Part shown: positions 3-53,569 of the stretch, piece after piece
Position numbering within the stretch: position 1 is the first letter of the stretch
How the letters are laid out: each line of letters opens with the position of its first letter
Assembly: GCA_009829735.1 (NCBI GenBank)
Contig: CM020620.1
Span: 26,444,951-26,508,950, forward strand
DNA length: 64,000 nt
Source of the DNA: Pyropia yezoensis
Lineage: Eukaryota > Rhodophyta > Bangiophyceae > Bangiales > Bangiaceae
Direction: 5' to 3'
Program-made: the position numbers and the translations under genes
Notes under the pieces: model-generated
Told to the model about the DNA's origin: nothing
The model's input: the letters and a program-made list of their open reading frames with translations, nothing else
Databases searched by the model: none

Positions 3-1370
3 ACGGGTCTCCCTGAGACCTCGACTCCTGGGACCGGCCAAGCTTTTCCTCCCCTTGCATCCTATGGAGCGCGGAGCTCCAAGACCGGTAACCGGAGCAG
101 CCGTAGGCGTCGGCGTCGTCGCCGTCGCTCTAGCACCAGCGAGACCAGTTCCTCCAGCTCTGAGGAGGGATATGATTGGGATGCATCTCCCGGTCCCACC
201 CGGCGCAGGCTAGTCGAGTTTGACTTCCCTGCCCACCAAGTGGGAGATGCCACCCTGAACAAGGTCACGTATTGGGGTAACTACCGGCTGGAGAACCAAG
301 ACCAAGGTTACACCCGGAAGATGGCCAAGAAGATGGCGTCCCTGAACCGGCGAATGCAGCCGAGCTTCGGGGGACATCCTAAGTTTTCCGGGAAGAGACC
401 GGCGCTTATCTTTGCCTTCCTGCGCCGGTTTGTCAAGGCATGCAATGACAACGATGTGTCCGAGGGCAAGGCTCTCTACCTCCTGGTTAACTTCATGACC
501 GGAGAAGCGGAACAGCGATTTGCACAGGTTCTACCAGACTCTGCCGGACACGTTGTCGGACGTACCGTCGCGAGTTATCCGGAGGCGGTCAACTGGCTCC
601 TGTCCAACTACGCTGACGCGGACTCTCTGCGTAAAGCAGTCGGCAGGCTGAACCGGGCAACCATGGAAAGACAAGAGACTCCAGAGGCGTTCGCCCGTCG
701 TGTCCGGGAGATGAGCGATGCTTGTGGCAACGTTTACCCTGAGGACAGGCTCAAGATGATCTTCTCGGAAGGGCTTCCTGAATATCTTCAAGTGGATGCG
801 GAGAACTACAACCAGGAACATCAAGAACATACCTTCCAGCAGTTGATGGCCTACACCCAGGGCAAGTACCGGCAAGCCAGGGCCCTCCAAGCTCCCATGG
901 TATCAACTCCCAAGCCGTTGTCGCGAGTTCGTTCCGGACCCGACAAGTATAAGGGAGGTGATAGCCCTGTACCGGTACTCGCAGTTGGCGAGGCCTCACC
1001 CGTGGGGTCAGGGGACAAGTGGGGCGGCTTCATTTCTAAGGAGCAACCATCCCTGGTCGCCCCCAAGCAAGTCAAGAACCAGCGGTTCCGGTCTTGTTGG
1101 CTGTGCCAGAAGGAGGATCACATGTCCTACCAGTGCCCGACCATTCCCAAGGACCTCCAGGAGAAACTCAAGCGTCAAGGACTGGTGTTTGCAAAGGCGG
1201 TCAACTGGGCTGACCGGCGAGCACCCTCCAAGATGGACCAGGCACAGGTACACGCAATCCGAGTGGCAACCTTACAGAGCATCACGGAGGCTCTGGCAAG
1301 GGAAGCTCCTACGGACTTTGACCTGGAGACCGAAACCTCTAAGGACTCCTCGGACCCGGGAAAAGAGTAG
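3..1370 (+). CDS. gag: Gag polyprotein of element A (5' partial)
   Basis: Structural capsid/nucleocapsid protein of the retrotransposon. The frame is open from base 3 to the TAG at 1368-1370 and its start lies outside the window. In order: an Arg run followed by a Ser/acidic stretch (about 105-165), a Ty3-type capsid region with FLRRFVKACNDNDVSEGKA and a Tyr-Pro-Glu-Ala-Val-Asn-Trp-Leu motif, and a CCHC zinc knuckle near 1096-1137 (CWLCQKEDHMSYQC, spacing C-X2-C-X4-H-X4-C) that would bind genomic RNA. It overlaps the pol frame by 28 bases, with pol in the -1 frame. The GTG at 240 is not a credible start, because the reading frame continues upstream with coding-like composition. Confidence 0.9.
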   Translation, partial: TGLPETSTPGTGQAFPPLASYGARSSKTGNRSSRRRRRRRRRSSTSETSSSSSEEGYDWDASPGPTRRRLVEFDFPAHQVGDATLNKVTYWGNYRLENQDQGYTRKMAKKMASLNRRMQPSFGGHPKFSGKRPALIFAFLRRFVKACNDNDVSEGKALYLLVNFMTGEAEQRFAQVLPDSAGHVVGRTVASYPEAVNWLLSNYADADSLRKAVGRLNRATMERQETPEAFARRVREMSDACGNVYPEDRLKMIFSEGLPEYLQVDAENYNQEHQEHTFQQLMAYTQGKYRQARALQAPMVSTPKPLSRVRSGPDKYKGGDSPVPVLAVGEASPVGSGDKWGGFISKEQPSLVAPKQVKNQRFRSCWLCQKEDHMSYQCPTIPKDLQEKLKRQGLVFAKAVNWADRRAPSKMDQAQVHAIRVATLQSITEALAREAPTDFDLETETSKDSSDPGKE

Positions 1371-4300
1371 GGCAGGCGCTCTCCCCAAGTGTCTTCCCGA
1401 ATCTCCGACGGCAGGGTACTTCTACCTGTTCTCCCCTTGCGTGCCGGGAGAAAGGACGGCAGTTACCCACTCAACCGGTAGCCGCCTGGACACCCTGTTT
1501 GTTCAAGGGGACATTGCTCGTCCTGCGTAAAGAAAACCTCGAGATTAATGCTCGTATGCGTGTGGGGGATAGCCTCCCCCAAGCTGTTACGCCGGTGGTT
1601 GACACGGGAGCCGGACCAAGCGTCATCACTGAGAACCTGTTACCTCCGGGCTGGCGTCGACATGCCTGGAGAGCGCCTACCCGGACCCATATCGTCGACG
1701 CTTCGGGTCAAACCCTACGACCGCTTGGCCGTCTTCCTGTCGCCATCTATGTCAACAATGAACCAATGCTTTTTCCCTTTCTAGTAGTCAAGACCCTATC
1801 AGTTCCCCTCATCCTAGGCTGGGACTTCCAGAAGCAGCATGTCAAGAGCATCCTACCCGGAGAAGGGAAGGTCCAGTTCAACCATGGGTTTGTGTCACCG
1901 GTATTGGAGCATCTGGACGCCAAGGTTCGTGTAGCCAAGAGCAAGAGGGAACACATCCCACCCTCTACCTTGACTCTCTTCAAACCGGTGCTCCTACCTC
2001 CTCGCTCGGAGACCAAGGTTCAAGTGACGACCCGGATTGCAGGTCAATGCCTGATCTACGGACGTAAGGAATTTCTGGCGAAGCACCGGTTATACTTGGC
2101 CCACGGACATCACAAGAAGGTAGAAAGGCACACCCCGTTCCCGGTGCTCATCGTCAACGTGAGCCGGAAGCCAATAACCCTCGCCAAGGGCACCCGAGTT
2201 GGTACAGCAGAGCCTTACCGGGGATCCGCCCGTGCTATGAGCAAGGAAGACCTCCTGAACCTGCAACAAGAACTGGCATCCAACTTGACGGCCTTAGACG
2301 TACCTCCGAAACAAGAGCAGGCTGGCAGCGCTACTCCGAAACCCGAACAAGCACCACCCGGGATGCCGAAGGTCAAGCAAGAAAATGTCCCTCCCGACTT
2401 GAAGGAGGCACTGGAGAAGCTTCTCCAGGAATATCGGCACCTGTGGTCGGGAGAGCTGGGCAAGATGGACGCCACTCTACACCGGATTCAACTCAAGCCG
2501 GAAGCTAAGCCAGTGCACACGCAACCATATCGGGCTGGACCTCATCGCCGGGATGAGATTGAGAAGCAGGTTAACAAGATGCTCAAGATGGATGTTATCG
2601 AGCCGTCTGATGGCGAGTGGGCTTTCCCGGTGGTAGTCGTCCCGAAAACCGGCGGTCACTTCCGTTTCTGCGTTGACTACCGGCGCCTGAACGAGATGAC
2701 AGTCAAGGACGTATACCCGATACCCCGGATGGATGATTACCTCGACTTTCTTGGTGATGCCACCCTCTTCTCGACGCTGGATTGTAGTGCCGGTTACTGG
2801 CAGATCCCTCTGGCTGACGAGGACAAGGACAAGACCACCTTCACGTGCCACCTGGGACTATTCCGGTGCAAGCGTCTTCCTTTTGGTCTCACCAATGCTC
2901 CGGCAACCTTCCAAAGAGCCATCGACATCATCCTGTCCGGGCTAAGGTGGAGAACATGTTTGGTCTACCTGGACGACATTATCGTTTTCTCCAAGACCCC
3001 AGCGGAACACCTGGAGCACCTTCGGGAGGTCCTGGCCCTCCTGTCCAAGGCTGGAGTTACCCTCAAGGCCGAGAAGTGCCACCTGTTTGAGACTGAGGTG
3101 GAGTATCTGGGGCACGTGCTGAGTCCGGGGGAGCTCCGAGTCAATGAGAAGAACATCAAGGCCCTCCGGCATGCACGGCAACCCAAAACCCAGACGGAAC
3201 TCAAGAGCTTCCTGGGTATGTGCAACGTCTACCGCCGGCTCGTACGGGACTATGCTCTGATTGCCCGGCCATTGACCAAGCTTACCAGCAAGAAGCTTCC
3301 AGCACAACTCCCGGTGTTCGACAAGAAGCAGACAGCGGCCTTCGAAGAGCTCAAGAAGCGCCTGACCACCACTCCAGTACTGGCGTTACCCAAGCGGGAG
3401 GGCCAGTTTGTTCTGGAGACTGATGCCTGTGGCGTCCTGGTGGGGTGCTCACTACTCCAGCAGCAACCTGATGGGCACTTCCTCCCGATAGGCTACTACA
3501 GTCGCGTCTTGACTCCAGCTGAGAAGAACTATTCCACGACCGAGCGCGAGTGCTTGGCAGTCGTCTGGGCTTGCTTTCTGTTACGGCCATATCTTGAAGG
3601 ACAAGAGTTCCTCATCCGGACGGACCACGCCAGCCTAAGGTGGCTGCTATGTATGGACAGCAGTCAAGGAAGGGTCGCCCGGTGGCGCCTACGCCTCTCG
3701 GAGTTCAAGTACAAGGTGTGCACCAGAGCAGGGAGGGAGCCCCACTGCGCCGACACCATGTCCCGGCTGGAGACTCCTGCAGCCGATACCGGTCCTATCC
3801 CGGAGGAAATACCTTGCTTCATCCTCCCGAATGTCGGACGTGGCTGGCATGCTCCCCTGTATGAGACACCTGAAGCTCATCAACCGGTGACTATTCACCG
3901 GATGCTGGAGGCACAACTGACGGATCCTCAATGCTTGGAGCTTCGCCACCAAATGGACCTGAACCGGAACAGTCGTTTCTCCGAGTCTACGGATGGACTC
4001 CTAGTACGGGTGTCACCCTTCGATGGGGCCACTCAAGTCTACGTACCCCGGGGCCTACGAGCTGACATCCTACGCCTGGAGCACTCGTCTCCCCAGGCCG
4101 GACATCCTGGTATCAATCGGATGTATGCTTCCATGAGACGACACTATTACTGGGAAACCATGGCCAGTGACGTCCATAAGTACCTGGAGGCTTGTGTTTC
4201 TTGTGCAAGGAACCGGTTGTCCCAGAGGAAGAAGACTTCTAAGCTACGCCTATTCCCTGCGGCGGAGCCCTTTGCAAGCTTAAGCATGGACATCCTGGGG

Positions 4301-5458
4301 CCCCTACCTGAAACATCCAGTGGCAACATATACCTGCTCATCATTTGTGACCGGTTCTCCAAGTTCACTCGAGCAATCCCGCTGAGGACCATCACGGCTC
4401 TGGATGTCACGTCAGCCTTCTGCGAGTACTGGATAGCTGCCTACGGCCCTCCAGACTCCGTCTTAACCGACAACGGTCCCCAGTTTGCATCCCTGTTCTT
4501 CCAAGGAGTCTGTGACCTGATGGGCATCAAGAACTTGTACACCACGACGTACCACCCGCAAACGAACGGCCAGGTGGAACGATTCAACCGGACCCTAGTA
4601 GACATGCTACGGCACTACGTGGAGGAGCACCAAGAAGACTGGGACGAGCTCCTGGCTGTCCTCACTCTAGCCTACAACTCCCGAGTTCACCGGACAACGG
4701 GGGTCGCTCCACTCGACTTTGTCACCCCAAGGCGGCTGACCAACTTCTCCCTGGAAAGAATACCAGACGGTCTCCAGCCTGCACTGAAGTCACGTCCCAA
4801 GGCAAAGGATGAGTTCCTGGAACAACTGAAGCTCGTGCTCCCAAGAGTCAAGGAGTCAATCTCGAAGACCCAGGAGCGATACAAGCGGGGCTATGACAAG
4901 GGCGTTCGGGAAAAGAACAAGGAACTGGGTGGTGGCGACTGGGTTTTTGTGGACAACCATAGCAAGACCCGGGGGAAGCTGGACTCGAAGACGGATGGAC
5001 CCTATGAGATCCTGAATACGGACGGTTCGACCTTTCTTCTAGACGTGGATGGCTCCCCGTACCGCGTGAGCAGCGACCATGTCACCCGAGCTCCACCGCC
5101 AAGCAAACGGGACTTGACCCGGCGCAAGCGGGCCGCAGTACCCTGGCTATCCCAAGAAGAAGGTCGGGAATATGTCTACGTCAAGTTTGTGGACCATGCC
5201 TGGAGAGACGGACGCCTGTACCTGCGAGTACGCTGGTTCGGTTTTAACCCGGCAGATGATACCTGGGAACCCTCAAACCGGCTACCCATCGCGGATGTCT
5301 GTGCCTACACGCGACGGAACGGGATAGAGGGCACTCCAGTGGCCAGAGCCGGCAAGATTCTGGAGTCGGGCTCGGAGGAGGACCAAGAGGATGGGGCCAA
5401 CCAAGACCCTCGGGACGAGCCGAGTTCATCCGCAACGGATGCGGAACAAGAGGATTGA
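1343..5458 (+). CDS. pol: Protease-RT-RNase H-integrase-chromodomain polyprotein, element A
   Basis: Polyprotein for reverse transcription and integration. The frame opens after a TAA at 1340-1342 and ends at TGA 5456-5458. It has no necessary ATG and is probably read by -1 frameshifting from gag. In order: aspartic protease active site DTGAGPS (about 1601-1621); reverse transcriptase with YLDDIIVFS (catalytic DD near 2969-2980); RNase H starting ETDACGVLVG (about 3415); integrase with an HHCC zinc domain (HPGINRM...CVSCARN, about 4095-4215) and catalytic D, D, E at about 4290, 4469 and 4577, spaced D-35-E; and a C-terminal chromodomain (about 5168-5310, VRWFGFNPADDTWEP) that may direct integration to marked chromatin. 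An acidic tail follows. There are no stops or frameshifts, so the enzyme could be functional. Confidence 0.93.
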   Translation, partial: GLLGPGKRVGQALSPSVFPNLRRQGTSTCSPLACREKGRQLPTQPVAAWTPCLFKGTLLVLRKENLEINARMRVGDSLPQAVTPVVDTGAGPSVITENLLPPGWRRHAWRAPTRTHIVDASGQTLRPLGRLPVAIYVNNEPMLFPFLVVKTLSVPLILGWDFQKQHVKSILPGEGKVQFNHGFVSPVLEHLDAKVRVAKSKREHIPPSTLTLFKPVLLPPRSETKVQVTTRIAGQCLIYGRKEFLAKHRLYLAHGHHKKVERHTPFPVLIVNVSRKPITLAKGTRVGTAEPYRGSARAMSKEDLLNLQQELASNLTALDVPPKQEQAGSATPKPEQAPPGMPKVKQENVPPDLKEALEKLLQEYRHLWSGELGKMDATLHRIQLKPEAKPVHTQPYRAGPHRRDEIEKQVNKMLKMDVIEPSDGEWAFPVVVVPKTGGHFRFCVDYRRLNEMTVKDVYPIPRMDDYLDFLGDATLFSTLDCSAGYWQIPLADEDKDKTTFTCHLGLFRCKRLPFGLTNAPATFQRAIDIILSGLRWRTCLVYLDDIIVFSKTPAEHLEHLREVLALLSKAGVTLKAEKCHLFETEVEYLGHVLSPGELRVNEKNIKALRHARQPKTQTELKSFLGMCNVYRRLVRDYALIARPLTKLTSKKLPAQLPVFDKKQTAAFEELKKRLTTTPVLALPKREGQFVLETDACGVLVGCSLLQQQPDGHFLPIGYYSRVLTPAEKNYSTTERECLAVVWACFLLRPYLEGQEFLIRTDHASLRWLLCMDSSQGRVARWRLRLSEFKYKVCTRAGREPHCADTMSRLETPAADTGPIPEEIPCFILPNVGRGWHAPLYETPEAHQPVTIHRMLEAQLTDPQCLELRHQMDLNRNSRFSESTDGLLVRVSPFDGATQVYVPRGLRADILRLEHSSPQAGHPGINRMYASMRRHYYWETMASDVHKYLEACVSCARNRLSQRKKTSKLRLFPAAEPFASLSMDILGPLPETSSGNIYLLIICDRFSKFTRAIPLRTITALDVTSAFCEYWIAAYGPPDSVLTDNGPQFASLFFQGVCDLMGIKNLYTTTYHPQTNGQVERFNRTLVDMLRHYVEEHQEDWDELLAVLTLAYNSRVHRTTGVAPLDFVTPRRLTNFSLERIPDGLQPALKSRPKAKDEFLEQLKLVLPRVKESISKTQERYKRGYDKGVREKNKELGGGDWVFVDNHSKTRGKLDSKTDGPYEILNTDGSTFLLDVDGSPYRVSSDHVTRAPPPSKRDLTRRKRAAVPWLSQEEGREYVYVKFVDHAWRDGRLYLRVRWFGFNPADDTWEPSNRLPIADVCAYTRRNGIEGTPVARAGKILESGSEEDQEDGANQDPRDEPSSSATDAEQED
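1358..1364 (+). other. -1 ribosomal frameshift heptamer, element A
   Basis: G GGA AAA, in the X XXY YYZ phase of the gag frame. It lies one codon (GAG) before the gag stop TAG, inside the 1343-1370 gag/pol overlap. A -1 slip here leads straight into the protease-pol frame. Element B has the same arrangement. I did not establish a downstream pseudoknot. Confidence 0.75.
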
Positions 5459-5603: not shown

Positions 5604-7721
5604 CTACTCCCGGCGCGGACGCTGAGCCGCGGGAGTGTCCTCCAGCGCTGCCTCCGCGGCACGACGGGAACCGGAGGAAGATGGGATGACGTAGTGCGGT
5701 GGACGCGGTGCATCCCGGTATGACGCCATCGGAGTAGTACCGGTAGTTGCCGGGGGCTCCCGCTCATCCAGATATGCCCGTCGGCGCCCCTGGAAGCCAG
5801 TGAAGGTTTCTGACCACTGCTGGGCCAAGCCATGCCGCGTCAAGGTCGCCAGAAGTTCGCCAACCACCGGGCTGTTCGACATCTGGCCGCTGTCCGCGCA
5901 AGCAAACACCCGGTCAACCACATTGTTCAAGACGCTGTCGTAAGTGCCCAGCACCAGGGAAGACCCGACGCCCTCAACCTGCACCGGAAGACGACCCAGC
6001 TGGTCTTCAATCATACCGACGTCGTACTGGTCGCATGTCGGGCCACCTTGGTTCAGGTACCAGTCAGGCACCCGGAAGCGGGTAAGGCGCAGAGTCGGCG
6101 CCGGGATCTCAAACCGCCCCGAGGATGCCACTACCGGACGGTCCACAACAGCCCCAGAAACCGGAGTCCCCAACTCCAGCAGAGGCGCAGGGCCGCCGAC
6201 GGTTGAAGAAGGCATCCGAGGCGGAACGGCCGGAGTAGTCGGTGACCGCACAGCCACCCCCAGACTCGCTGCAGACAAGCGCGGTGCCGGAGAAGCTTGA
6301 AGCGCCGGCACAGACGGAGCGGAACGCAGACGCGCCGGCGACGGTTCAGGCGAGGCCACCGGGACGACAGGTGGAACAGGAGGAAGCGGAGCCGCCGCAG
6401 ACGCCTGACCGACCGCCGCGGCCCATCCCGACTCTTGCACCGGCGGCCCAGCTGGCAGAAGATCTAGGGCGACCGGAGCAGGAAAGCTGCCTAGCTGCGG
6501 CCACGCCGGAAGCGGTGTCGCTAGCTGCACCTTGGCCGGAGGAGACTGGTACACCACCTGCGCCCACCCGGAGCCATCCCGACGCGGGCGGTTCTGGTCG
6601 GCAATCGCGTTCAAGAAGTTCCGGTCATGCACCGGCACCAGACGCCGGAAGTCAATCATCGCCTGGAAGAGCCCCTTGTACTCTTCGTTCTGGCTGCACA
6701 GGAAGTCGACGGTCAACTTGTCGACAATCCAGACCATCAGGAGGTCAGGGAGAAACCAAAGCCGGTTGGACACCAAGACCTCGTGAAGCCAGTGGTTGGC
6801 CGCCAAGACTGTCATCTCGGACGTGTACATCATGTACGGGATCGAGTGGAAGAAGCCCTTGATCGACGCCTGAGTCAAGGCGTCCAAGAAGTACCAGGTG
6901 AAGGGGATGCTGGAAGGAGCAAACCCGACCGGGATCTCGACTTCCTGCTGCTGCGGGATGACCTTGGGGTAGTACGCCGCCCGGTTAGCCTTATCCAGCT
7001 TCCAGAACTCCTGATGGTTGCAGCTCACGAGGAAGTCACGCTGACGGCCGCGTCGCTCGCCTTGCTCCCGTGCCGGTGACAACTTCGAGTACTTCCGGGT
7101 CAGGAAAGGCGGCTCCAGAGCGACCATGCTCGGACGGGGGTCGCAGTTCAGGCTCCCCGACCCCTTGAGCGCCTCGTCCCAGACCTTGAGCGCCCGGTGG
7201 ACGTACCCTTCCTCCTCCGGCCACGGGAGAACGGACGCGGACACGCGACGCTCGGTCAAGGGCAGATCCAGCACCAGCGCGAAGGGGAGATCCTCCAGAC
7301 GAGCAACCCAAGAGGAACCCGAGAAGCTCTGGGAGCGGTCTTGTGCCAGGCGCATCTGGTCCGCCGTGTGAAGACGAGCCTTATCCATCTCTGTCGAGAC
7401 CCCGCGCTGGAGTTCCTTGCGCCAGAGGTCCAAGCAATCCTGCTGGCACTGGGCCGCGCCGGCGTTGCCGACCACCGTGGAGTAACGCCGGGCCGCCAGA
7501 GGGTCCTGCCCAAGAAGCATCTCCGGGAGACCCACAGGGGGGGTCTCGACCGGGTGCATCACAAAAGCCGGGGGAACCCGATCCGTCCCCGCCGTGGCGA
7601 CCGGCGCCGACATCGACACCCGAGGAACCGGAGGCAGGAGAGGGGCGCGGCTACCCGAGTTCTCCTCCGCAACACTCGCCGCCGGAACCACGGGCCCAGC
7701 TTGGATCTCGGAACTGGACAT
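5604..7721 (-). CDS. Antisense accessory ORF of element A (705 aa, unknown function)
   Basis: A 705-aa protein read opposite to pol. I chose the ATG at 7721 (MSSSEIQAG); the frame stays open upstream to an ATG at 7913 at the LTR edge, which would add 64 aa. It has a Ser/Ala/Pro-rich N-terminus, a folded-looking region with conserved Trp and Pro (YYPKVIPQQQEVEIPVGF, then NHWLHEV and LWFLPDLLMVWIVDKL), a Pro/Ala linker, a second helical segment, and a basic tail. Elements B, C and D encode visibly related proteins in the same place and orientation. It is not a gag or pol part, since A has both, and I recognise no known domain. Antisense ORFs between pol and 3' LTR are known in plant Tat-lineage elements such as Grande (gene23). 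Whether this family is related to those is unknown. Confidence 0.8.
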   Translation of the reverse strand: MSSSEIQAGPVVPAASVAEENSGSRAPLLPPVPRVSMSAPVATAGTDRVPPAFVMHPVETPPVGLPEMLLGQDPLAARRYSTVVGNAGAAQCQQDCLDLWRKELQRGVSTEMDKARLHTADQMRLAQDRSQSFSGSSWVARLEDLPFALVLDLPLTERRVSASVLPWPEEEGYVHRALKVWDEALKGSGSLNCDPRPSMVALEPPFLTRKYSKLSPAREQGERRGRQRDFLVSCNHQEFWKLDKANRAAYYPKVIPQQQEVEIPVGFAPSSIPFTWYFLDALTQASIKGFFHSIPYMMYTSEMTVLAANHWLHEVLVSNRLWFLPDLLMVWIVDKLTVDFLCSQNEEYKGLFQAMIDFRRLVPVHDRNFLNAIADQNRPRRDGSGWAQVVYQSPPAKVQLATPLPAWPQLGSFPAPVALDLLPAGPPVQESGWAAAVGQASAAAPLPPVPPVVPVASPEPSPARLRSAPSVPALQASPAPRLSAASLGVAVRSPTTPAVPPRMPSSTVGGPAPLLELGTPVSGAVVDRPVVASSGRFEIPAPTLRLTRFRVPDWYLNQGGPTCDQYDVGMIEDQLGRLPVQVEGVGSSLVLGTYDSVLNNVVDRVFACADSGQMSNSPVVGELLATLTRHGLAQQWSETFTGFQGRRRAYLDEREPPATTGTTPMASYRDAPRPPHYVIPSSSGSRRAAEAALEDTPAAQRPRRE

Positions 7722-7905
7722 GACGTCCAGACTCCGGGGGAACGAGAGGGCCAAGGTGAAGGAGAGAAGGGGAGCAGAGAATCGGAACAGGTGATCGTGA
7801 CCAGGGTGAAGACGCTCGACCTCGGCACCGGTGTGGACGTGCTCGAGGCTGTGCACGGTGGCACCTGGTTCGGCCCGAGGACGTGCCGGACTAGGGAGGG
7901 AGCTA

Positions 7906-8476
7906 TGTAGCATCCCTGACCCCGACTTGGCGCCGACCCGGGACTACAACCAGAGGGCACCAGGTGCCAGAACACGCCCGCCGTGTGGTGATGGTTGGCG
8001 GCCGTGGCCCGTGCCCGGCACTGGGATGCGGTGGACTACGCTATCCACCCGTGAGAGAGGGATTTCTGATGGGTTTTTGCATACTTGTGAGGGACTTGAT
8101 TTGAGAGAATTTGAGTGTGAGATTAGTGAGTGGGAATAGAATTAGTAGTGATAGTGGCCCCCGACCTGACGAGGTTAGACTCGGGTCGGGGCCACTCGGG
8201 GTTATGGGGGGGCTACCTGGCCAACGTGCCGAGGCTCCCCCAGATGCAAGTTAAGAGGGACAGCGAGGCGCCCTTGGCCCGCGCCCTCAGGAAAAAGACA
8301 ACTGCGCGTTTGCTTTCCTCTTCCCCGTGTGCACTACCGTGCGTATCTGTTTGCTCTGCGAGCAGGCACGTGAGGCAACAGGCATACCATTCTCGTAGTT
8401 CCCCTTTCTGTGTTACCTGTCCCTTTCCCCCGAGGGATATTGACACGTGTCTGAGAGGATCGAGTTTTATACCACA
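7906..8476 (+). repeat. 3' LTR of element A (571 bp)
   Basis: It begins TGTAGCATCCC and ends TATACCACA (TG...CA). The boundaries are fixed by three other copies in the window (8525-9090, 17463-17696 partial, 42720-43292 inverted). It contains an inverted repeat (CCCCCGACCTGA at 8158-8169 against TCGGGTCGGGG at 8181-8191) that could form a hairpin in LTR RNA. The 184 bp before it (7722-7905) are the leader of the antisense ORF. Confidence 0.88.
8464..8471 (-). promoter_or_regulatory. Candidate antisense TATA box in LTR A
   Basis: On the minus strand the outer end of the LTR reads TGTGGTATAAAACTCG, so TATAAAAC points into the element, toward the antisense ORF. It is preserved in the inverted copy (42725-42732) and altered in the copies at 8525-9090 and 17463-17696. 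This is inference from sequence only. Confidence 0.4.
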
Positions 8477-8524
8477 CCAGGCTGTGAAGGACCAGCCTGG
8501 GTATATACATACTATTGATGCTAC

Positions 8525-9327: not shown

Positions 9328-12300
9328 GAATGACCGTTGGAGCTGGTCGTCCGAAGCTCACAACGGCAGCCTCGGCCAAGTGGGTCAAGAGGACGAACCA
9401 ACCGTGCCGGATACTGCGGCGACCTAAGGGAGTCCGCCCACCTCGGGTAGGACTCCCCAAGAACGTAAACCCACGTCGGGTCATCGCGGTGCTGACGGGT
9501 GAGAACTTCCAGGTGGCTGGACGGGTGCAACTTGCCCCCGGCCGCGCCTGTTGTGCCCGTATCGTACTTGATACCGGGTCAGGAGCCTCCTTGATACGCA
9601 AGTCTCTATTACCGAAGGAGATGAAGCTCCAACGCTGGAAGTCTAAAGCTGACCATCTGATCGATATCAATGGTTGGGTACTTCCCATCGTTGGTGCCGT
9701 GACCCTACCAACTAGGTTGGGGACCCATGAGGTCGACGTGACCTATGGAGTAGTTTAGAATATATCGGTACCCCTGCTTCTGGGTACCCCTTATGTTGTT
9801 ACTCAAGTGCCTTTGACTTGTGGCCCTGAGTATTGGGTCAAGTTGATGAATGGGGAAACCATCCCCATCCTTGGTAAGGGAAAGTCTGTGGCTCCTGTGA
9901 CAGTCTCACAGTCGAAGCCTGTTTACTCTGTGAGAGAAGGGTTTACTGCTACCCTGCGTTTAGCCCGTAAGGTCACGTTGCCCCCCAACTCGGTGGCGCA
10001 CGTTGACGTTGTAACTGATTATACGGGGAACGGGTTGGTGCACCCTCACCCCCGTCTTGCTCGCAAGCACCAAGTGCATGTTGCCCTTGGCACGATGGAA
10101 TCCAAAGCCGGAGTCCCGTGGAGGATCCAGGTGATGAACCTGAGCTCGTCGCCCAAGTACTTCAAGTCGGGAGCCAAGTTCGGCTATATCGACCAACACG
10201 AGGGACCGGTAGTAGCGGTCACCCTCAACGCGGGCGCAAGTAGCGACCCGAAGCCCGGAAAGGAGAAGCATCAAGCCAAGTCGCCGCCTCTCCTCGGCCC
10301 CATGTGAACATGGAGGGTGTCCCACCCAGGTTGAGGGTTCAAGTTGAACGCCTCTTGGACCAATATCACAAGTTGTGGGATGGTCAATTGGGACTCATGA
10401 GAGCCACCCAACACCGGATCGAGTTGAAGCCCGGTGCACCCCCTATACGCCAACAACCGTATAGGGGAGGACCCCGTTCAAGGGCCCTCGTCAAGGAGCA
10501 AGTTGCTCGCATGGAGGCCCTCGATGTGATCGAGGCCAGTAACGCCGAGTGGGCGAGTCCGGTGGTTATCGTCCCCAAAGGTGATGGGACCCCCCGGTTC
10601 TGTATCGACTACCGTAAGCTCAACGAGAGCACGGTGAAGGACAGTTATCCCCTACCTAGGATGGACGACTGTCTGGACTCTCTGGGGGAGGCAAACGTGT
10701 TCTCTACCCTGGACTGTAACGCGGGGTACTGGCAAAATCCCATTGCCCCGGAGGACAGGCATAAAACTACCTTTACCTGTCACTGTGGTACCTACCAGTG
10801 CAAGCGTCTACCGTTTGGCCTGTGTAACGCGCCGGCAACTTTCCAGCGCGCTATGGACATGATTCTGGCCGGAGTACGGTGGCAGATCTGTCTCGTGTAC
10901 CTAGACGATATCATTGTGTTCTCCCGAAGTCCGGAGGAACACATTGGCCATCTTGGCCAGGTGTTCAAGCTACTTGCTGACGCCGGTGTGTCACTGAAGG
11001 CGAGTAAGTGCCACCTCTTCACTCAAGAGGTGGAATACTCGGGACATGTTGTCCGTCCGGGGCGTCTCAGTGTCAACGAGAAAAACCTGAGGGCCATCCG
11101 TAAGGCTCAGTACCCCCGGACCCAGACCCAGATGAGGAGCTTCCTCGGGATGTGTAACGTGTACCGACGTTTCACCAAGGGCTTCGCCAAGGTGGCGAAA
11201 CCGTTGAATGAGTTTGTGAGCTCAACGCTACCGAAGAACCTGCCTCCCCCAAGTCGGGTGGAGCAGGAATCCTTTGAGACTCTTCGGGACCTTCTGCTGA
11301 AGCCCCCTATCCTGGCTACTCCCAGGTTGGGAGGCCACTACATCCTGGATGTGGACGCTAGCTACGACCAACTTGGTTGTGTGTTGCTTCAGCAGCAGCC
11401 GGACAAGGAGTACTTGCTGGTGGGATACTTCAGCAAGGGGCTGAACTCGGCCGAGAAGAACTACGGAGTCACCGAGTTGGAAGGACTCGCAGTGGTGTGG
11501 GCGGTGACATCACTTCGTCACTACCTAGAGGGTGAGAAGTTCCTCATCCGCTGTGACCACCGCGCGTTGCAGTTCATCTTCAAGACGGACTGTACGAACA
11601 CTCGTCTCAACCGGTGGAGGGTGTGACTGGCACCCTTCAACTTTGATATTGAGTACCGACCTGGCAGGCAACATGCCCTTGCCGACGGCCTCTCTCGGGT
11701 ACCTACCGAGGGGCTGGACACTAACCCAGTCGATGAGGACATCTTCATCGTGGGGGTAGTCATGCGCTCGGGTCAGGCGTTGAACCCCGAGGCGCCAGGG
11801 AACAAGAAGTAATTGCCCCTGTCCCTGGACGAGGTGGTGAAGGCCCAGGCCGAGGATCCCTTCTGCAAGTCGCAGAGGGATACCCTGGATACAGTGGCGG
11901 AGACGCGGTTCTTTCTGGGAGACGATGGCCTCCTCATGAGGAGGGGGGTATTCCAGGGGACCGAACAACTTGTCGTCCCCGCATCCCTCAAGGACAGTGT
12001 CCTTGAGAGGGAGCATAACGCTCCCACAGGTGGACACCTGGGGTCTAGTAAACTGTACCGGACCCTGAGGACCAGGTACTACTGGCCGTCCATGGTGGTG
12101 GACATCTACAGTTGGGTGGCTGCCTGCACAAGTTGTGCACAGAACCGTCTGATGGAACGGCGGCCTACTACGGCTATGCTATTGTTCCTGGCCAATGAGC
12201 CCTTTGCCGCGTTGGCGATGGACATCCTTGGGCCACTGCCAGTGACCGAGGGGGGCAACCAGTACCTCCTGGTTATCTGTGACCGCTTCACGAAACTTAC

Positions 12301-12515
12301 GCGAGCGATCCCACTGGCAGAGATCACGGCCATGTCGGTCGTGTCAGCCTTCCTAGATCACTGGGTTGCCGCGTATGGCATTCCGGATAGTACACTATCG
12401 GACAATGGACCGCAATTTGCGTCTGTACTGTTTCAGGGAGTGCTGGATATGTTGGGGGTGCGGGCAAACTATGCCACCCCCTACCACCCACAAACTAATG
12501 GGCAGGTGGAGCGCT

Positions 12516-12627
12516 TCAACAACACTATTGTTAGGCAGCTGCGCCACTATGTGAGTGAGCACGTGAAAACGTCAACAAAACTATTGTTCGGCAGCTGCGC
12601 CACTATGTGAGTGAGCATGTGAAAACG
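12516..12627 (+). repeat. 56-bp tandem duplication in element B integrase
   Basis: Two adjacent copies (12516-12571 and 12572-12627) differ at only a few bases. The unit starts TCAACAA and contains GCAGCTGCGCCACTATG. Because 56 is not a multiple of 3, it shifts the frame just after the DDE glutamate region. The small divergence shows that the duplication is not brand new. Confidence 0.9.
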
Positions 12628-13479
12628 TGGGACCAATACATTTCTATTCTTACCACTGCCTACAATTCGCAGGTTCACTCATCTACCGGGGAAGTACCCC
12701 TCGCTTTTGTGACCCCCCGTCGCGTGCGGTCTATTGCCGTTCGGCGGCCGCTCCCAACTAGGGAGGATGGCGGCAGGACGCCTACTCCTACTGAGAGTAA
12801 GGCGGAGTTCGCTGCTAGGCTTGAAAACCCCATCCCTAAAGTTAGGGCTGAGATGGACAAAGCACAAAAGCGCTACAAGCGTACCTTTGACAAAAAGGTG
12901 CGCAACGCCAAGCATGTCCCCGAGCAGGGTGACTGGGTATTGGTCCACTCACACACCCCAACTGGGGGTAAGTTGGTATTCCAGACGAAGGGGCCGTACC
13001 AGGTCCTTCGTACTGATGGGCGGCGCTTCACCATCGAAAGTGACGATGGGGTCCGCACAGTGAACGGACAGGACGTGGTCAAAGTTGCACCACCGCCTGC
13101 AGGCGACCCAGCTTGGGCGCGTGCTTTGGAAGCGTGGCGCCTCCCCTCACTGCCTGCGGCCAAACAGGGCCCGCAGGAGTACGTGTTCGATAAGTTCATC
13201 GACCACGGCTGGGATGAGGACACTGACCGCCTCATGTTGAGGGTGCGTTGGTTTGGCTACAAAGCCAAGGATGATACGTGGGAGTATGTGGAGGACCTTC
13301 CCGCTGAGAAGGTCCGGGCGTACTGTGCCCGGAATGAGATAGACCCTAACAGCCCTCCCTCAACGTGAGGGAAGGCCGAGCAACAGTGCCAAGAGAGTGC
13401 TTCAAGTCGAAGTGGTACGCAGAGTGGCTTTTTACTACAGCCCGAACCCTCACACTCTCACAACAAAGGCAGCTGCCAA

Positions 13480-15417
13480 CTAGGCATGCATGCTAGACTC
13501 TCCAACCCCACGGCCCTCGCCCTCACGTGGAGGCGAGCGGCGAGACCCCCGGCGATAACGCTCCCTACCAGTCGGGGGGGCCGGCGGCTCCATGTCGGAC
13601 CCGTCGCGCCCCTCACGGTCGCGCAAGTGGCGACGACCGCGGCTGCTCTTAGTCTTGCGCGCAAGTTGGCGACGCAGACGCCGGACCGACTCCGACTCTG
13701 ACGGAGTCGAGGACTCCGAGACGGAGTAAGACAACTCGTCTTCCGACACGGAGGGAGAGCGCCGCGAGCGTCGGCGACGACGGCGAGGAGGCGAGTATGC
13801 CCGGCTCGCACGACGTTTGCCACGCCCAAGTGGGGCTGGATGGGGCATGATAGCCCCAATGCGAGCCAACTCGGCCGTCATAAACTCCGCCACCGACTCG
13901 CAACTCGCGGTCGCCACTGCAGTACGAACGCGCTCCTCAAGTTGAGGAGTCTCGGAAGTTTGAAGGGTTGCGGTCGACGCGGCCAACCAGGAAATGGTGC
14001 GCACGAACGTCGTGATCATCATCTCTGAGGTTAGAGGCGTGGGCGGTAACACCAACTTGGGGTATACCGTCAGGAGGGTGGCCCCCAAGTTGGGAAACAC
14101 CGGGGTGGACGACTCAACGGCCACGCTAATCGGGATTTCCCCGTGCGGCTGGTAGGGGACAGGAGGAAGCGGAGGGGCACGCCGAGGTGGCGGGACCCGG
14201 GTGTAACTGCGACCCCAACTTGGGGCCCCCGTAGTGGGTTGAGTCATATGGTCATCATGTGAGGGCACGGCCATAACTATGGCCTTGTCCGGGGGTGGCG
14301 CAGGGTGGCGATCCACCCCCGGGGCATACGGGTAGTCCCCGATGCCCAACCCCTCTCGTAGGACCACACGGCCGTCGTGAAGTTCACGAGCGACCCATAC
14401 GAACTGGCGAAGTGCGCCATCGTCCTTGGGCCCACGAGTGGGGCGGCGCAACTTGTGCTCGATGCTCTCCCACTCGATAAACATGTGGAGGCGGAGCATC
14501 TCCTCAAGTAGAGTGAGTTGTCCTGATGAGCACCCCTCAGCAACTAGCTGAGGGGTGAGCTGTTCCAAACCTTGGATAAGCCGGAGGGGGCGATGCCAGA
14601 GCATCCCCCGCCGCTGAACACAAGACACCCAGGTCGACATGACCTCGAGGAGCCACTGGGTGGCCAACATAGCCCACACCAGGTGATCAGGGCCAGCCGT
14701 CAACATGACGGAGCCGAAGTGGTCAAGCAACCGTGGCAGCAACGCCGGGAACCCGTAGGGGACCTCAACTTGAGGCCACCACTCGGGCTTCTTCGGATAG
14801 TACTGCTCCTTACTGGCAGCAGACTGCTGAGGAAACTCAAGTTGAGCCGAGGTCACCAAGTAGGGACCTCGCCGGAAGTCCTTCTCCATCCGCACATCAA
14901 AGTGATGAGTGTGTGGATCGGCCTCGTGAAGGTACGGGGGGCGAGTTGCCACCGCGTCCCAAGTAAAGGTCGCCAAGTCGCCGGGACCCGGGATAGTTCC
15001 CCCGCGGTCCACCATGGCCTTGGCCCGCTGTACGTCTTCGACCTCCTCGTCGTCCAGGAAGGCAAACTGGTCCGTCCTGAAGCCGGCAGGGAACCCGACC
15101 CTACGGGGATACTTCTCCCGTAGGTGGTCCCATACCCGACCGATCGCTGCGCCAAGTCGGCCACAGCGAAGAACAGTCAACCCCTCCTCATATAGAGGCC
15201 AAGCGGGGTAAAACCACCGCCCCAAGGCCTCACGCGGGACAACTTGTCCCGCCTCCGGGGGAGATCCCGCCGTCAACCCAAAGCCGGGTGACGCGGGAGT
15301 CCCATCCCCCGGAGCGATCGCGGAGCCCCTGCCGGAAGTCCCGGCGGGCGCTGCACTGTAGGGGGTGTCCTCCATACGTTCGTCGAGAGAGTCCGTCTCC
15401 ACCCCCGGGGTCGCCAT
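13480..15417 (-). CDS. Antisense accessory ORF of element B (645 aa)
   Basis: Start ATG at 15417 (MATPGVETDSLDERMED); the frame is open further upstream to 15588. The protein has a Pro/Gly-rich N-terminus, a folded core with WDHLREKYPRRVGFPAGF and a YYPKKPEWWPQVEVPYGF block, helices with LATQWLLEV and RGMLWHRPLRLI, the motif LREGLGIGDYPYAPGVD, a second helical segment, and an Arg/Ser-rich tail resembling a nuclear localisation or RNA/DNA-binding region. The block WW..VEVP.GFPA is shared with the C protein, and REGLG..D.PYA.GV is also shared with C. The ORF has no stops although gag-pol of the same element is broken in at least five places. Function unknown. The pol-antisense spacer (13369-13479) is 111 bp. 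Confidence 0.8.
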   Translation of the reverse strand: MATPGVETDSLDERMEDTPYSAAPAGTSGRGSAIAPGDGTPASPGFGLTAGSPPEAGQVVPREALGRWFYPAWPLYEEGLTVLRCGRLGAAIGRVWDHLREKYPRRVGFPAGFRTDQFAFLDDEEVEDVQRAKAMVDRGGTIPGPGDLATFTWDAVATRPPYLHEADPHTHHFDVRMEKDFRRGPYLVTSAQLEFPQQSAASKEQYYPKKPEWWPQVEVPYGFPALLPRLLDHFGSVMLTAGPDHLVWAMLATQWLLEVMSTWVSCVQRRGMLWHRPLRLIQGLEQLTPQLVAEGCSSGQLTLLEEMLRLHMFIEWESIEHKLRRPTRGPKDDGALRQFVWVARELHDGRVVLREGLGIGDYPYAPGVDRHPAPPPDKAIVMAVPSHDDHMTQPTTGAPSWGRSYTRVPPPRRAPPLPPVPYQPHGEIPISVAVESSTPVFPNLGATLLTVYPKLVLPPTPLTSEMMITTFVRTISWLAASTATLQTSETPQLEERVRTAVATASCESVAEFMTAELARIGAIMPHPAPLGRGKRRASRAYSPPRRRRRRSRRSPSVSEDELSYSVSESSTPSESESVRRLRRQLARKTKSSRGRRHLRDREGRDGSDMEPPAPPTGRERYRRGSRRSPPREGEGRGVGESSMHA

Positions 15418-15713: not shown

Positions 15714-16442
15714 TCACAGGGCCGACCGGGTCGGTCGGAACTGAGGAGAGGGGAGTGTGGCAGTATTGACCCCCAGGTAGGGGGGCAACACGTGCCATGC
15801 AAGGGGCGGCAGGCCACTAGCCTGATCCGTTCCTCCCCCTGCATTTGGGTCCATATTCCCTAAGTTTGGGATAATTAGCTTAGTAGTAAATCCAACTTGG
15901 ATTTGAGGGTTTTCTGCATTTATCGTCTTGAACTTTCGTGTGGCCCGGTGGGCAGGTGCTGGGGTGGGAGATTCTGAGTGGCGAGATTCTGAGTGGACCC
16001 TGGGGGGATAAGGGGAGGGACAGCGGGGCTTGGCCCTGCGTCCCCGTCCCGACCAAGAAACTGTTGGACCACACACCATCCTCTTGTTTGTCAGTGGGGG
16101 GTTTGCCCCACAACAGGGACAGAGTGTGTGCGACTTGCACTTCTTCCGGTTCCCCCGACACGGGAGGCAGCCCTTGTACACCGCCCCAACTTGGGTGTCG
16201 TGTGTCCAAGTGGTTTTTGCCACATGTAGTTGCTTCGTTCCGATTTTGGGACTTCGTGTTTTTTTCAATTTATGTAGTTTATCTTCCTGAGTCGGTTGTC
16301 CCACCGCATACGCCGCGGCTCGGCGTCCGCAAGCAGGAAAAAGGTACTCACCGTGCAGACCACGCTCCCAGAACCCCCCCGCCACGCCTCCATGACGAAA
16401 GCCGTTCTCTGGGTGGTCTTCATCCCAGTCGGTGCCAAGCAC
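15714..16442 (-). other. ORF with a Cys-rich Zn2Cys6-like motif
   Basis: A 242-aa open frame crossing the candidate LTR of B. Near 16080-16170 it reads GCLPCRGNRKKCKSH and then LCPCCGAN. The spacing C-X2-C-X6-C-X5-C-X2-C with a basic loop resembles the first five cysteines of a fungal-type Zn2Cys6 cluster; the sixth is 12 residues further on, which does not fit. A GTGAGT at about 16353 could be a splice donor. It may be a gene piece, a product of LTR antisense transcription, or chance. Confidence 0.2.
15756..16224 (+). repeat. Candidate 3' LTR of element B
   Basis: Begins TGTGGCAGTATTG and ends GCCACA, matching the TGTRGCA...CCACA ends of the LTRs of A and D. No second copy is in the window, so the boundaries are inferred. 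It contains the B-specific motif CCAACTTGG. The preceding 338 bp (15418-15755) are the leader of the antisense ORF. Confidence 0.45.
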
Positions 16443-43477: not shown

Positions 43478-44014
43478 ATGTCCAGTTCCGAGATCCAAGC
43501 TGGGCCCGTGGTTCCGGCGGCGAGTGTTGCGGAGGAGAACTCGGGTAGTCGCGCCCCTCTTCTGCGTCCGGTTCCTCGGGTGTCGGTGCCGGCGCCGGTC
43601 GCCACGGCGGGGACGGATCGGGTTCCCCCGGCTTCTGCGTTGCACCCGGTCGACACCCCCCCGGTGGGTCTCCCGGAGATGCTTCTTGGGCAGGATCCTC
43701 TGGCGGGCCGGCGCTACTCCACGGTGGTCGGCAACGCCAGCGCGGCCCAGTGCCAACAGGATTGCTTGGACATCTGGCGCAAGGAACTCCAGCGCGGGGT
43801 CTTGACCGAGATGGACAAGACTCGCCTTCATACGGCGGACCAGATGCGCCTGGCACAAGACCGCTCCCAGAGCTTCTCGGGTTCCTCTTGGGTTGCTCGC
43901 CTGGAGGATCTCCCCTTCGCGCTGGTGCTGGATCTACCCTTGACCGAGCGTCGCGTGTCTGCGTCCGTTCTCCGGTGGCCAGAAGAGGAAGGGTACGTCC
44001 ACCGGGCACTTAAG
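43478..44014 (+). pseudogene. Antisense accessory ORF of A', truncated
   Basis: The first 179 codons match the element A antisense protein with few changes (MSSSEIQAGPVV, AAQCQQDCLD, WRKELQRGV, SVLRWPEEEGYVHRALK). The frame is kept, and the ORF is cut by the start of element C at 44015. The leader before it carries an indel relative to A, since the upstream M-L-H-S-S frame of A is a different frame here. That argues for the ATG at 43478 as the real start. Confidence 0.85.
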
Positions 44015-44905
44015 TGTAGCAGTACTCCCAACCACCAACCCCGAGTCAGGGAAGGAAGAGGAGTATTGCCGATATCCCAACTTGGGACACCGGAAGCAAG
44101 CACCTCCACACAGCCGAACACGGAACTTGCGTGTGGTGAGCGGGTCCACTCACCAAGGCACGAACAAGATGTGTCGGAGCCAGACGGTGTTTACTTGCTT
44201 GGCCAGCCAAGGTGGGCTCTCCCCGCCTTGCTGTCCCTCCTTATCAACCCTCCTTACACGCTCACGCAACCCCTCAAAACACTCAGAAAATGAACCCTCA
44301 AACAAACCAATCATATCACTCCACATGCAAAGCACTCAAAGCGTAGAAATCCGTCTGGCTCCCGTGCAAAAATCCCAAGAAACAAATACCAGCAGCATGA
44401 CCCTGCTCTAGTATGTCGGAAGTCCTAGTCGAATTTCCGTCCAGAAGTCAGAAGTTTCACCATCGTGGGTCGGGTGAATTTCGACTTCCGGTGAGGTCCA
44501 CTTGACCCGAATCTCCAAAGTATTGGTACCGAATTCCGGCCCAATCTCCCACATTTTCCCCTTCTCAAAAGTCCAGCCGTCCCGGTGGACGTCCAATCAG
44601 CTGCGAGTTGCAGTGACCGGGAGAGGAGGATGCAATTCCCGAGTCGGGATGCAAAGTACGGTGCATCGCTGGCGTCTAGCGTGCACCAGGGTTACGCCGG
44701 GGTTGCACTCGCGTCCGGCGGGGCCCTCCGAGAGAGGCAGTCCCTCTCCGTGGGGTGCGCTCTCTGCCCTAACCTGGGTAGAGGAGCCCCCTCCACGCGA
44801 AACAGGTGTGGGGGAAAGTCGTCCCCCACCTGGTCAGGGTGCTCCACGGGTGGACTCCCGTGTGGGTGGGCCCCCTAACCTGGGTGTCGGCGTTCCTCCG
44901 CCACA
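44015..44905 (-). repeat. Candidate 3' LTR of element C
   Basis: On the minus strand it would begin TGTGGCGGAGG (44905) and end CTGCTACA (44015). This fits the TGTRGC start and CA end of the other LTRs. The outer edge is firm, because A' homology stops exactly at 44014. The inner edge is a guess, with no second copy to compare. Confidence 0.4.
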
Positions 44906-53162: not shown

Positions 53163-53569
53163 TGTGGAATATGTGTTACCCAATATAAAGGATATGGGAC
53201 CGACCGGCGCCCGGAAGGCAAAGAGGAAGCTATTACCGTAGAGGCAAAGAAGACAGACCTTTAGCTCCTGGACGTTCGATGGGGAGCAAGCCGGCCGAAG
53301 GCAGCGGCGAGTCCCCACGTCGCAGATAAGGGCGAAAACAATATGCCGGTCGAGCGACCGAGCGGAGGCCGGACGGCCGATCGCTACGAGCATAGCAATC
53401 AATATAAAAGATCCCTCCAAGGCAAGGACAGATAAACAATACAAAACAAAAGTAGTCCCCCAAAGGGCGAGCCACAAGCGGACCCATGCCAACAAGGCTG
53501 GGGCCACCAGTCAGGGGGGCTACAAGCCAGTAAATACCGGAATTCGGTACAAGGGGCGGATATGCTACA
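53163..53569 (-). repeat. 3' LTR of element D (407 bp)
   Basis: On the minus strand it begins TGTAGCATATCC (53569) and ends TATTCCACA (53163), with the same termini as LTR A. It joins element C gag without spacer. The ATG at 53562 on the plus strand overlaps the LTR start, exactly as the ATG at 7913 does in element A. Confidence 0.6.
53403..53410 (+). promoter_or_regulatory. Candidate antisense TATA box in LTR D
   Basis: TATAAAAG followed by ATCC, pointing toward the antisense ORF of D. A second TATAAAG is at 53184-53190. LTR A has TATAAAACTCGATCC in the same relative orientation. Confidence 0.4.

What the first reader, a model, noticed from the sequence alone, without database searches (positions are those of the whole stretch)
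5604..7721. Family of convergent antisense ORFs carried by four different chromoviruses
Seen: in elements A (5604-7721 -), B (13480-15417 -), C (45658-47574 +) and D (54375-56261 +) a 628-705 aa ORF sits between the end of pol and the 3' LTR, on the opposite strand. Gaps to pol are 41-145 bp. The proteins share the block W/YYP....VEVP.GF (weaker in D), then an LA..W helix, then LW.LP or CWLPD, and a second helical segment before a low-complexity tail. B and C also share LREGLG..D.PYA.GV. Known: antisense ORFs at this position are described in plant Tat elements such as Grande (gene23). I know of none defined for chromoviruses. Inference: an accessory protein family that has travelled with these elements through deep divergence.
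Basis: partly seen in the sequence, partly recalled or inferred. Interest (0 to 1): 0.9.

Follow-up and report, generated by a model that had tools for sequence, protein, structure and literature searches.

The report
Antisense accessory gene in seaweed retrotransposons
Several families of jumping genes in the nori seaweed genome carry an extra gene written backwards at their tail end; it encodes a conserved protein with no known relatives outside these seaweeds' elements in the searches made, probably a helper that regulates the element.

Summary
The four antisense ORFs exist where stated, between pol and the 3' LTR of four chromovirus-type LTR retrotransposons in Pyropia yezoensis. They encode one protein family. 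Profile comparison links D to B/C (E 3e-6) and A to B/C (E 1.6e-7), far outside 100 column shuffles each; A and D are linked only through B/C. The ORFs do not overlap pol, and the frame is under purifying selection: dN/dS 0.13-0.21 between D subfamilies, against 0.25-0.33 for the neighbouring pol end. Relatives 40-58% identical occur in Pyropia vietnamensis and unnamed contigs. No Pfam, NCBIfam or PDB relative was found. Of 59 D-type pol ends listed, 44 have the ORF convergently behind them; six sampled loci behind other strong chromodomain hits have none. Three D-type loci that lost almost the whole ORF keep an oriented CAAGG(G)CG motif array that precedes it. The position is a known kind (plant Retand/Grande; Chlamydomonas REM1), but this protein has no Transposase_28 domain or chromodomain. 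Best reading: a trans-acting, probably nuclear, regulator of the element. Coding is near certain; mechanism is inferred. No transcript evidence or structure model could be obtained.

The parts
5604..7721 (-). antisense ORF of element A, 705 aa
   Evidence: 49 of 63 listed genomic rows have no stop inside (best-scoring rows only)
1499..5458 (+). pol of element A: protease, RT, RNase H, integrase, weak chromodomain
240..1370 (+). gag-like ORF of element A (CA-like region and a CCHC-type motif seen by eye; no Pfam hit), showing that the antisense ORF is not the gag
   Evidence: matches the gag pieces of C
7906..8476 (+). 3' LTR of element A (TG...CA); 5' LTR lies left of the window, 98.9% identical; 5-bp target duplication CCAGG
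7893..7903 (+). presumed polypurine tract of element A
   Evidence: read from sequence; inference
13480..15417 (-). antisense ORF of element B, 645 aa
   Evidence: 58 of 68 listed rows without stop (best-scoring rows only)
10304..13368 (+). pol of element B in three frames (RT-RNase H, integrase, chromodomain); no 5' LTR found in 9001-10400
15756..16224 (+). 3' LTR of element B
   Evidence: placed by the LTR pair of copy L010
45658..47574 (+). antisense ORF of element C, 638 aa
   Evidence: 59 of 70 listed rows without stop (best-scoring rows only)
47699..50962 (-). pol of element C
51727..53221 (-). gag pieces of element C in two frames, with a zinc knuckle
44012..44553 (-). 3' LTR of element C
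   Evidence: placed by the LTR pair of copy L037
45301..45554 (.). 96-bp tandem repeats between 3' LTR and antisense ORF of C
54375..56261 (+). antisense ORF of element D, 628 aa
   Evidence: dN/dS
56303..60519 (-). pol of element D, broken into overlapping frames; chromodomain above cut-off
53163..53569 (-). 3' LTR of element D (407 bp; 100% identical to the right-hand LTR of copy L032, whose own pair is 99.5% identical)
53907..54340 (.). GC-rich tandem array before the D ORF, with the oriented motif [G/C]CAAGG(G)CG between about 53976 and 54277

Best explanation
Shown: the antisense ORFs are real protein-coding accessory genes of one family, kept under purifying selection by a group of chromovirus-type LTR retrotransposons in Pyropia red algae (I put this at 0.97). 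Inferred: the gene has its own promoter between the 3' LTR and its start codon; the protein consists of a conserved W/P-rich, probably helical core, a proline/serine/arginine-rich linker, a second probably helical segment and, in B, C and D, a strongly basic low-complexity tail; it enters the nucleus and acts in trans on the element's DNA or transcript, tuning transcription, chromatin state or silencing, in the manner proposed for the antisense proteins of plant Retand/Grande elements. The confidence below is for this whole statement including the mechanism.
For: Homology with shuffle controls: D vs B/C E 3e-6 over 252 columns, A vs B/C E 1.6e-7 over 165 columns; 100 column shuffles each gave at best E 0.014 and 0.024. 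dN/dS of D vs D1 and D2 subfamilies 0.13-0.21, against 0.25-0.33 for the adjacent pol end; core and the segment before it are tight (0.09-0.17), linker and tail loose (0.17-0.65). ORFs do not overlap pol, so pol cannot explain the constraint. Relatives 46-57% identical in Pyropia vietnamensis. 44 of 59 D-type pol ends carry it convergently. Tail pI 10.3-11.8 in B, C, D; best 19-residue hydropathy at most 1.54 in all four, so no obvious membrane segment. D-type loci L073-L075 lost nearly all the ORF but keep the upstream motif array, and L073 and L074 are 94% alike with the same loss, so such copies spread: fits a protein supplied in trans. Precedent: Grande gene23 protein is nuclear with its own promoter (PMC7264820, passages).
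Against: No expression, localisation or DNA-binding evidence. A's tail is not basic (pI 6.95). No known DNA-binding domain in the members scanned (weak chance-level matches only). No structure model, so helicity is a guess from sequence. The motif array is absent before the ORFs of A and B, scarce in D1 copy L046, and C's repeat is unrelated in sequence. Spread of copies without the ORF could equally mean that it is dispensable.
Confidence: 0.45

Rival explanations
1. Structural or trafficking protein: the product joins the virus-like particle or moves it (a capsid-, chaperone- or movement-like role) rather than regulating the element in the nucleus.
For: Plant sense-strand extra ORFs are thought env-like, with movement or chaperone roles proposed (PMC7264820, passages). 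Proline-rich ends and a conserved core would fit an assembly protein (inference).
Against: A separate gag with CA-like region and zinc-knuckle motif exists in A and C; gag does not match the family (hhalign E 0.21-0.78); no obvious membrane segment; an antisense particle protein would need its own promoter.
Confidence: 0.2
2. Silencing suppressor acting on RNA: convergent transcription makes double-stranded RNA at the pol end, and the protein made from the antisense transcript blocks the small-RNA response.
For: The convergent tail-to-tail layout is kept at 41-145 bp in A-D and at 46-379 bp in the 44 matched D-type pol ends. The review discusses dsRNA from such transcripts (PMC7264820, passages). 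Basic tails in B, C, D.
Against: No known suppressor domain among Pfam matches; no transcripts or small-RNA data examined.
Confidence: 0.15
3. A captured host gene carried as a passenger, without a role in the element's life cycle.
For: GC content at first and second codon positions is higher than in pol, nearer the one host-region ORF compared.
Against: Relatives of both the C and the D type occur in P. vietnamensis, the gene sits at the same place in four divergent elements, and selection persists between subfamilies. In the D list 46 of 71 rows lie next to a listed pol end; the other 25 and the A, B and C lists were not examined for this.
Confidence: 0.08
4. Chance open frame in GC-rich DNA, with no protein made.
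For: GC-rich sequence makes long open frames easier: the longest open stretches in base-shuffled sequences reach 463-574 codons.
Against: dN/dS 0.13-0.21, third-position excess, homology between elements and between species, 0 of 2000 shuffles per ORF as long.
Confidence: 0.02

Closest known systems
Antisense aORFs of plant Tat/Retand-lineage elements (Grande gene23, RIRE2, Retand; Transposase_28, PF04195)
   Same: Same place (pol to 3' LTR), same antisense direction, present in most copies, tandem repeats often nearby (PMC11963269 abstract, Background and Discussion sections and passages; PMC7264820 passages and section 5).
   Different: Retand elements are non-chromoviruses of flowering plants with PF04195; here pol carries a chromodomain and PF04195 has no match in this genome at E<=10.
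REM1 of Chlamydomonas reinhardtii (chromovirus)
   Same: A chromovirus of an alga with a reverse-frame coding region (PMC2774666 passage).
   Different: In REM1 the reverse-frame part is what remains of the integrase, the GPY/F module and chromodomain; here integrase and chromodomain remain in pol and the antisense protein has no such Pfam match. The REM1 paper itself was not held; its position downstream of pol and its PHD finger are recalled. Sequence relation not tested.
Boty of Botrytis/Sclerotinia and PvRetro13 of bean
   Same: Antisense ORF between pol and 3' LTR (PMC7264820 section 5).
   Different: Sequences not held here, so relatedness is untested; PvRetro13's ORF2 is reported to have an SMC domain, not found here.
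VANC proteins of Arabidopsis VANDAL transposons
   Same: Element-encoded accessory protein whose targets often form tandem repeats (PMC5735166 abstract); D has a tandem motif array.
   Different: VANDALs are DNA transposons (recalled); no sequence relation tested; DNA binding and demethylation unknown here.
HBZ and other antisense retroviral genes (HTLV)
   Same: Antisense regulatory gene of a retroelement with a nuclear product (PMC11963269 Background section).
   Different: HBZ is a bZIP protein (recalled); no bZIP match here; start inside the LTR untested.

Membership tests
Antisense accessory ORF between pol and 3' LTR (aORF-3R class) | ORF between pol and 3' LTR, antisense to gag-pol | tested here: met
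   for all four elements
Antisense accessory ORF between pol and 3' LTR (aORF-3R class) | Present in most copies of a family | tested here: met
   D type: 44 of 59 pol 3' ends (the rows that reach pol residue 395 or beyond; both lists capped). A, B, C not tested this way
Antisense accessory ORF between pol and 3' LTR (aORF-3R class) | Sequence conservation similar to other element proteins | tested here: met
   D type only: dN/dS. Across families the antisense protein is less conserved than pol
Antisense accessory ORF between pol and 3' LTR (aORF-3R class) | Own transcript and nuclear protein (known for Grande) | not testable with these tools
   no RNA or localisation data held
Retand lineage | Transposase_28 domain (PF04195) in the antisense ORF | tested here: not met
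   (sequence profile only; no profile-profile comparison was possible)
Retand lineage | Non-chromovirus Gypsy element | tested here: not met
   chromodomain matches in all four pols, three of them below Pfam's cut-off
REM1-type reverse ORF | Chromodomain/GPY-F (PHD finger recalled) in the reverse ORF | tested here: not met
   no chromodomain or PHD Pfam match in the members scanned; GPY/F was not tested separately
Chromovirus | Chromodomain at the integrase C-terminus | tested here: met
   D above cut-off (39.0 vs 25.1 bits); A 19.8, B 22.2, C 17.1 below it but their pol C-termini align with each other there
Chromovirus | RT/integrase phylogeny inside the chromovirus clade | not tested
VANC-like self-targeting factor | Tandem motif array in the element's non-coding region | tested here: inconclusive
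   met in D, L045, L050, L047, L048, L049; only 1-2 motif hits in L046; absent before A and B; C has an unrelated repeat
VANC-like self-targeting factor | Protein binds the array and removes silencing | not testable with these tools
   needs binding and methylation data
HBZ-like antisense gene | bZIP domain | tested here: not met
   no bZIP Pfam match

The most novel reading that the evidence does not exclude
The antisense protein and the oriented CAAGG(G)CG array before it are a two-part self-recognition system: the protein binds the array of its own element family and keeps it open or un-silenced, so that deletion derivatives that lost the gene but kept the array are still mobilised. It would be an independently evolved counterpart, in a red-algal retrotransposon, of the VANC system of plant DNA transposons.
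Probability: 0.12. Interest if true: 0.85.

Novelty: new variant of a known kind. Interest (0 to 1): 0.62.

Why it matters
Antisense accessory genes at this place are described for flowering-plant Tat elements, bean PvRetro13 and fungal Boty, and a reverse-frame gene for REM1. A further protein family at the same place and in the same direction in red algae, not related to Transposase_28 by the tests made, suggests that this gene position has been filled more than once. That points to a general advantage of a convergent, separately controlled accessory gene in LTR retrotransposons. It also gives a case with many intact copies, graded subfamilies, relatives in a second species and natural deletion derivatives, in which the unknown function of such genes can be tested. 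LTR retrotransposons are the predominant repeats in this genome, nearly half of which is repeats (PMC7423979, passage), so the family also matters for annotating hypothetical proteins in Pyropia.

Tried and rejected
Rejected: chance ORF; shadow of pol (no overlap); the antisense ORF being the gag (sense gag present; hhalign E 0.21-0.78); envelope protein (no obvious membrane segment); Transposase_28 member; REM1-like displaced chromodomain.

Led nowhere: PDB sequence searches (no match better than E 0.14); NCBIfam; viral contigs (0 relatives of C and A; B and D not scanned); P0015's C-terminal extension (the one weak Glyco_transf_61 match is probably in it; looks like a fused gene model). The copy at L023/L061 could not be traced to a 5' LTR. 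Conservation of C's 96-bp repeat: an exact core was found in 1 of 12 C copies and a shorter one in 2 of 12, so no claim. Results against my reading: direct A-D profile comparison is not significant (E 0.1 and 0.29). Of the 15 D-type pol ends without a match, 4 were examined: three keep only 27-53 residues of the ORF's start, and one (L076) keeps 26 residues of its C-terminus, where a foreign insertion may be the cause; the other 11 were not read. L074 also gave a hit to residues 431-521 at E 0.005 inside the repeat array, taken as chance. Copy lists are capped at best-scoring rows, so counts of intact copies are biased upward. In one search the row 'polA_int_chromo' was read out of frame by my mistake and is not used. 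On checking, the six loci L067-L072 fall into two groups by DNA similarity, so they are not six families.
Full report
Where the window lies. The window is G000:C3:26444951-26508950 of a 107.5-Mb genome whose three large contigs measure 29,385,039, 34,331,705 and 43,592,136 bases. The Pyropia yezoensis genome paper gives three scaffolds of 29.4, 34.3 and 43.6 Mbp, with 48.0% repeats, LTR retrotransposons predominant among them (PMC7423979, abstract and passages). The match in sizes identifies the organism; no name was given by the tools. The word gypsy does not occur in that paper's main text; it was not searched for antisense ORFs.

The observation. Each lies tail to tail with pol, separated by 145 (A), 111 (B), 124 (C) and 41 bp (D), without overlap. 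The other five frames over each ORF hold 6 to 34 stops, and none of 2000 base-shuffles per ORF reached its length in any frame.

The elements. Pol domains were found in all four. The chromodomain is above Pfam's cut-off only in D (39.0 bits); A, B and C score 19.8, 22.2 and 17.1 against 25.1, but their pol C-termini align with each other across that stretch. Element A has a 3' LTR at 7906-8476, a 5' LTR 98.9% identical just left of the window and a 5-bp target duplication CCAGG. The LTRs of B, C and D were placed with LTR pairs of other genomic copies. The ORF start codon lies 184 (A), 338 (B), 1104 (C) and 805 bp (D) from the 3' LTR boundary (lengths). A separate gag is present on the sense strand in A and C.

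One protein family. Pairwise BLASTP joins B with C strongly (34% identity over 287 aligned positions), A with B and C, and B with D; A-D is weak and C-D is absent. A shuffle test on the cores agrees: 0 of 800 for A-B, A-C, B-C and B-D, but 13 of 800 for A-D and 6 of 800 for C-D. With relatives added, the D profile matches the B/C profile at E 3e-6 over 252 columns, and A matches it at E 1.6e-7 over 165 columns. One hundred column shuffles of each query gave minima of 0.014 and 0.024. A against D stays insignificant (E 0.29), so A and D are joined only through B/C. The D-type protein of P. vietnamensis, which the B/C profile does not contain, matches that profile as well (E 7e-4). Pol gives a similar order: RT-RNase H identity is 69% for B-C and 57% for A-B; A-C is 47% over 1070 positions of pol; D pieces are 34-54% identical to the others. 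Within D, the listed D1 and D2 copies have antisense-protein identities of 83-86% and 70-73%. The pol ends beside the same copies are 79-84% identical for D1 (one fragment 68%) and mostly 65-67% for D2 (57-60% in two, 87% in one short piece).

Selection. D1 and D2 were compared with D codon by codon. dN/dS is 0.13-0.18 (D-D1) and 0.18-0.21 (D-D2), with 65% and 57% of differences at the third position in the two pairs tallied. By segment, the core and the segment before it are tight (0.09-0.17); the second conserved segment is 0.15-0.27, and linker and tail are loose (0.17-0.65). The adjacent end of pol gives 0.25-0.33, so within D the antisense protein is at least as constrained. Copies within the D subfamilies show 0.69 pooled, as expected after insertion; within A, B and C it is 0.23-0.33. 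Listed rows without a stop: A 49 of 63, B 58 of 68, C 59 of 70. These are the best-scoring rows only and therefore favour intact copies.

Other species. A search of 5.8 billion proteins, in which only the 8000 candidates sharing most words were scored, found 6 proteins with C: P0009 (95% identical), P0010 (58%, source lgn), three Pyropia vietnamensis hypothetical proteins (MMPV_009580, 009578, 004663; 52-57%) and P0014 (50%, source lgn, 30 contigs). With D it found 5: MMPV_008440 and MMPV_005735 (46-47%) and three unnamed jgi/ena proteins (40-41%). With the first alignment it found one, P0005, 94% identical to A. B was not searched alone. Unless elements moved between species, both the C type and the D type are older than the split of the two Pyropia species. 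Whether these genes lie antisense in elements there could not be seen; MMPV_009578 and 009580 bear near-consecutive tags and their contigs have the same listed length. Whether P0005 and P0009, on contigs of 2.3 and 2.7 kb, come from transcripts is unknown. Scans of viral contigs with C and A found no relative.

Distribution within the genome. Of the 104 rows, the 59 that reach pol residue 395 or beyond were tested: 44 have a convergent match to the antisense protein 46-379 bp behind them. The list of antisense matches is itself capped, so some of the 15 misses may be missed matches. Four of the 15 were read. L073 and L074 keep only residues 17-43 of the ORF and L075 residues 1-53, close to pol; L076 keeps only residues 597-622. 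L073 and L074 are 94% identical and share the loss, so a deletion derivative has multiplied. Six loci behind strong chromodomain hits outside these families (L067-L072, two groups by DNA similarity) show no relative within about 2.5 kb (best E 0.027). The gene therefore belongs to a subset of the chromodomain-bearing loci. The chromodomain search scored 150 of 2351 candidates, so this is a sample, not a survey.

The array. Between the 3' LTR and the D ORF lies a GC-rich tandem array. The motif [G/C]CAAGG(G)CG occurs there 9 times in D, 11 in L045 and 11 in L048, all in the direction of the antisense gene, against shuffle means of 0.25-0.42. It occurs 13, 13 and 8 times in L073, L074 and L075, which lost the ORF (one more on the other strand in L075; shuffle means 0.24-0.60), and 0 times in L076 and in the D LTR. 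The related heptamers counted are frequent in L050, L047 and L049 but occur only 1-2 times in L046. The 53 kb of window left of D holds 2 and 9 hits on its two strands. A and B have no such array; C has an unrelated 96-bp repeat at the same place. Subfamilies at dS of about 0.5-1.1 thus share the motif, and derivatives without the protein keep it. This fits a cis element served by a trans-acting protein; a promoter or RNA signal of another use, or the chance of where the deletion fell, is not excluded.

What the protein is not. No Pfam or NCBIfam family beyond chance-level matches, no credible PDB relative, no match to gag, no membrane-length hydrophobic stretch. Transposase_28 has no match in this genome.

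How it probably works. Plant antisense ORFs at this place are conserved, one (Grande gene23) is transcribed from its own promoter and is nuclear, and a regulatory role is proposed (PMC11963269, abstract, Background and Discussion; PMC7264820, passages and section 5). The basic tails of B, C and D, the lack of obvious membrane segments, the multiplication of copies without the gene and the retained array lead me to the same class of explanation here: a separately expressed, trans-acting nuclear factor. Every step after 'conserved protein' is inference.

Known or new. The position is a known kind; REM1 shows that a reverse-frame gene also occurs in an algal chromovirus (PMC2774666, passage). The protein family appears undescribed: the searches that bear on it listed no report of an antisense ORF in red-algal Ty3/gypsy elements. 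I saw only the top of the longer lists (20 of 190, 8 of 225), and the library holds only openly licensed papers. The Bostrychia genome paper named in PMC12477816 (passage) was not read.

One search repeated the search in full. Mended after checking: identity range of relatives (40-58%), which segments are tightest, the pol identities, the number of groups among L067-L072, and wording on capped lists.

Noticed in passing
window 50168-51992 and 62173-64000: Start of a tandem duplication of about 12.0 kb, 99.7-100% identical, whose second copy beyond the window also repeats the D ORF unchanged; a very recent duplication or an assembly artefact.
   Followed up: partly
window 8520-9090 and 17461-17696: Further copies of all or part of the LTR of element A (93-95% identical), one close behind A's own 3' LTR.
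   Followed up: no
window 42720-44014: Fragment of an A-type element (3' LTR and the start of its antisense ORF, 95% identical), directly beside element C's LTR end.
   Followed up: no
L073, L074, L075: D-type loci that lost nearly all of the antisense ORF but keep the motif array; L073 and L074 also show D's LTR, share the deletion and have multiplied.
   Followed up: partly
L067-L072 and the hit list: Other loci with far stronger chromodomain scores (54-66 bits), some neighbouring hits spaced about 5.7-6.8 kb apart; no antisense ORF of this family in six sampled.
   Followed up: partly
P0015 (MMPV_008440, Pyropia vietnamensis): A D-type antisense protein followed by a long C-terminal stretch not shared by its relatives; probably a fused gene model (one weak Glyco_transf_61 match among the A8 members).
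   Followed up: no
window 30529-30732, 25446-25637, 35195-35378: GC-rich simple repeats in the region between the elements.
   Followed up: no
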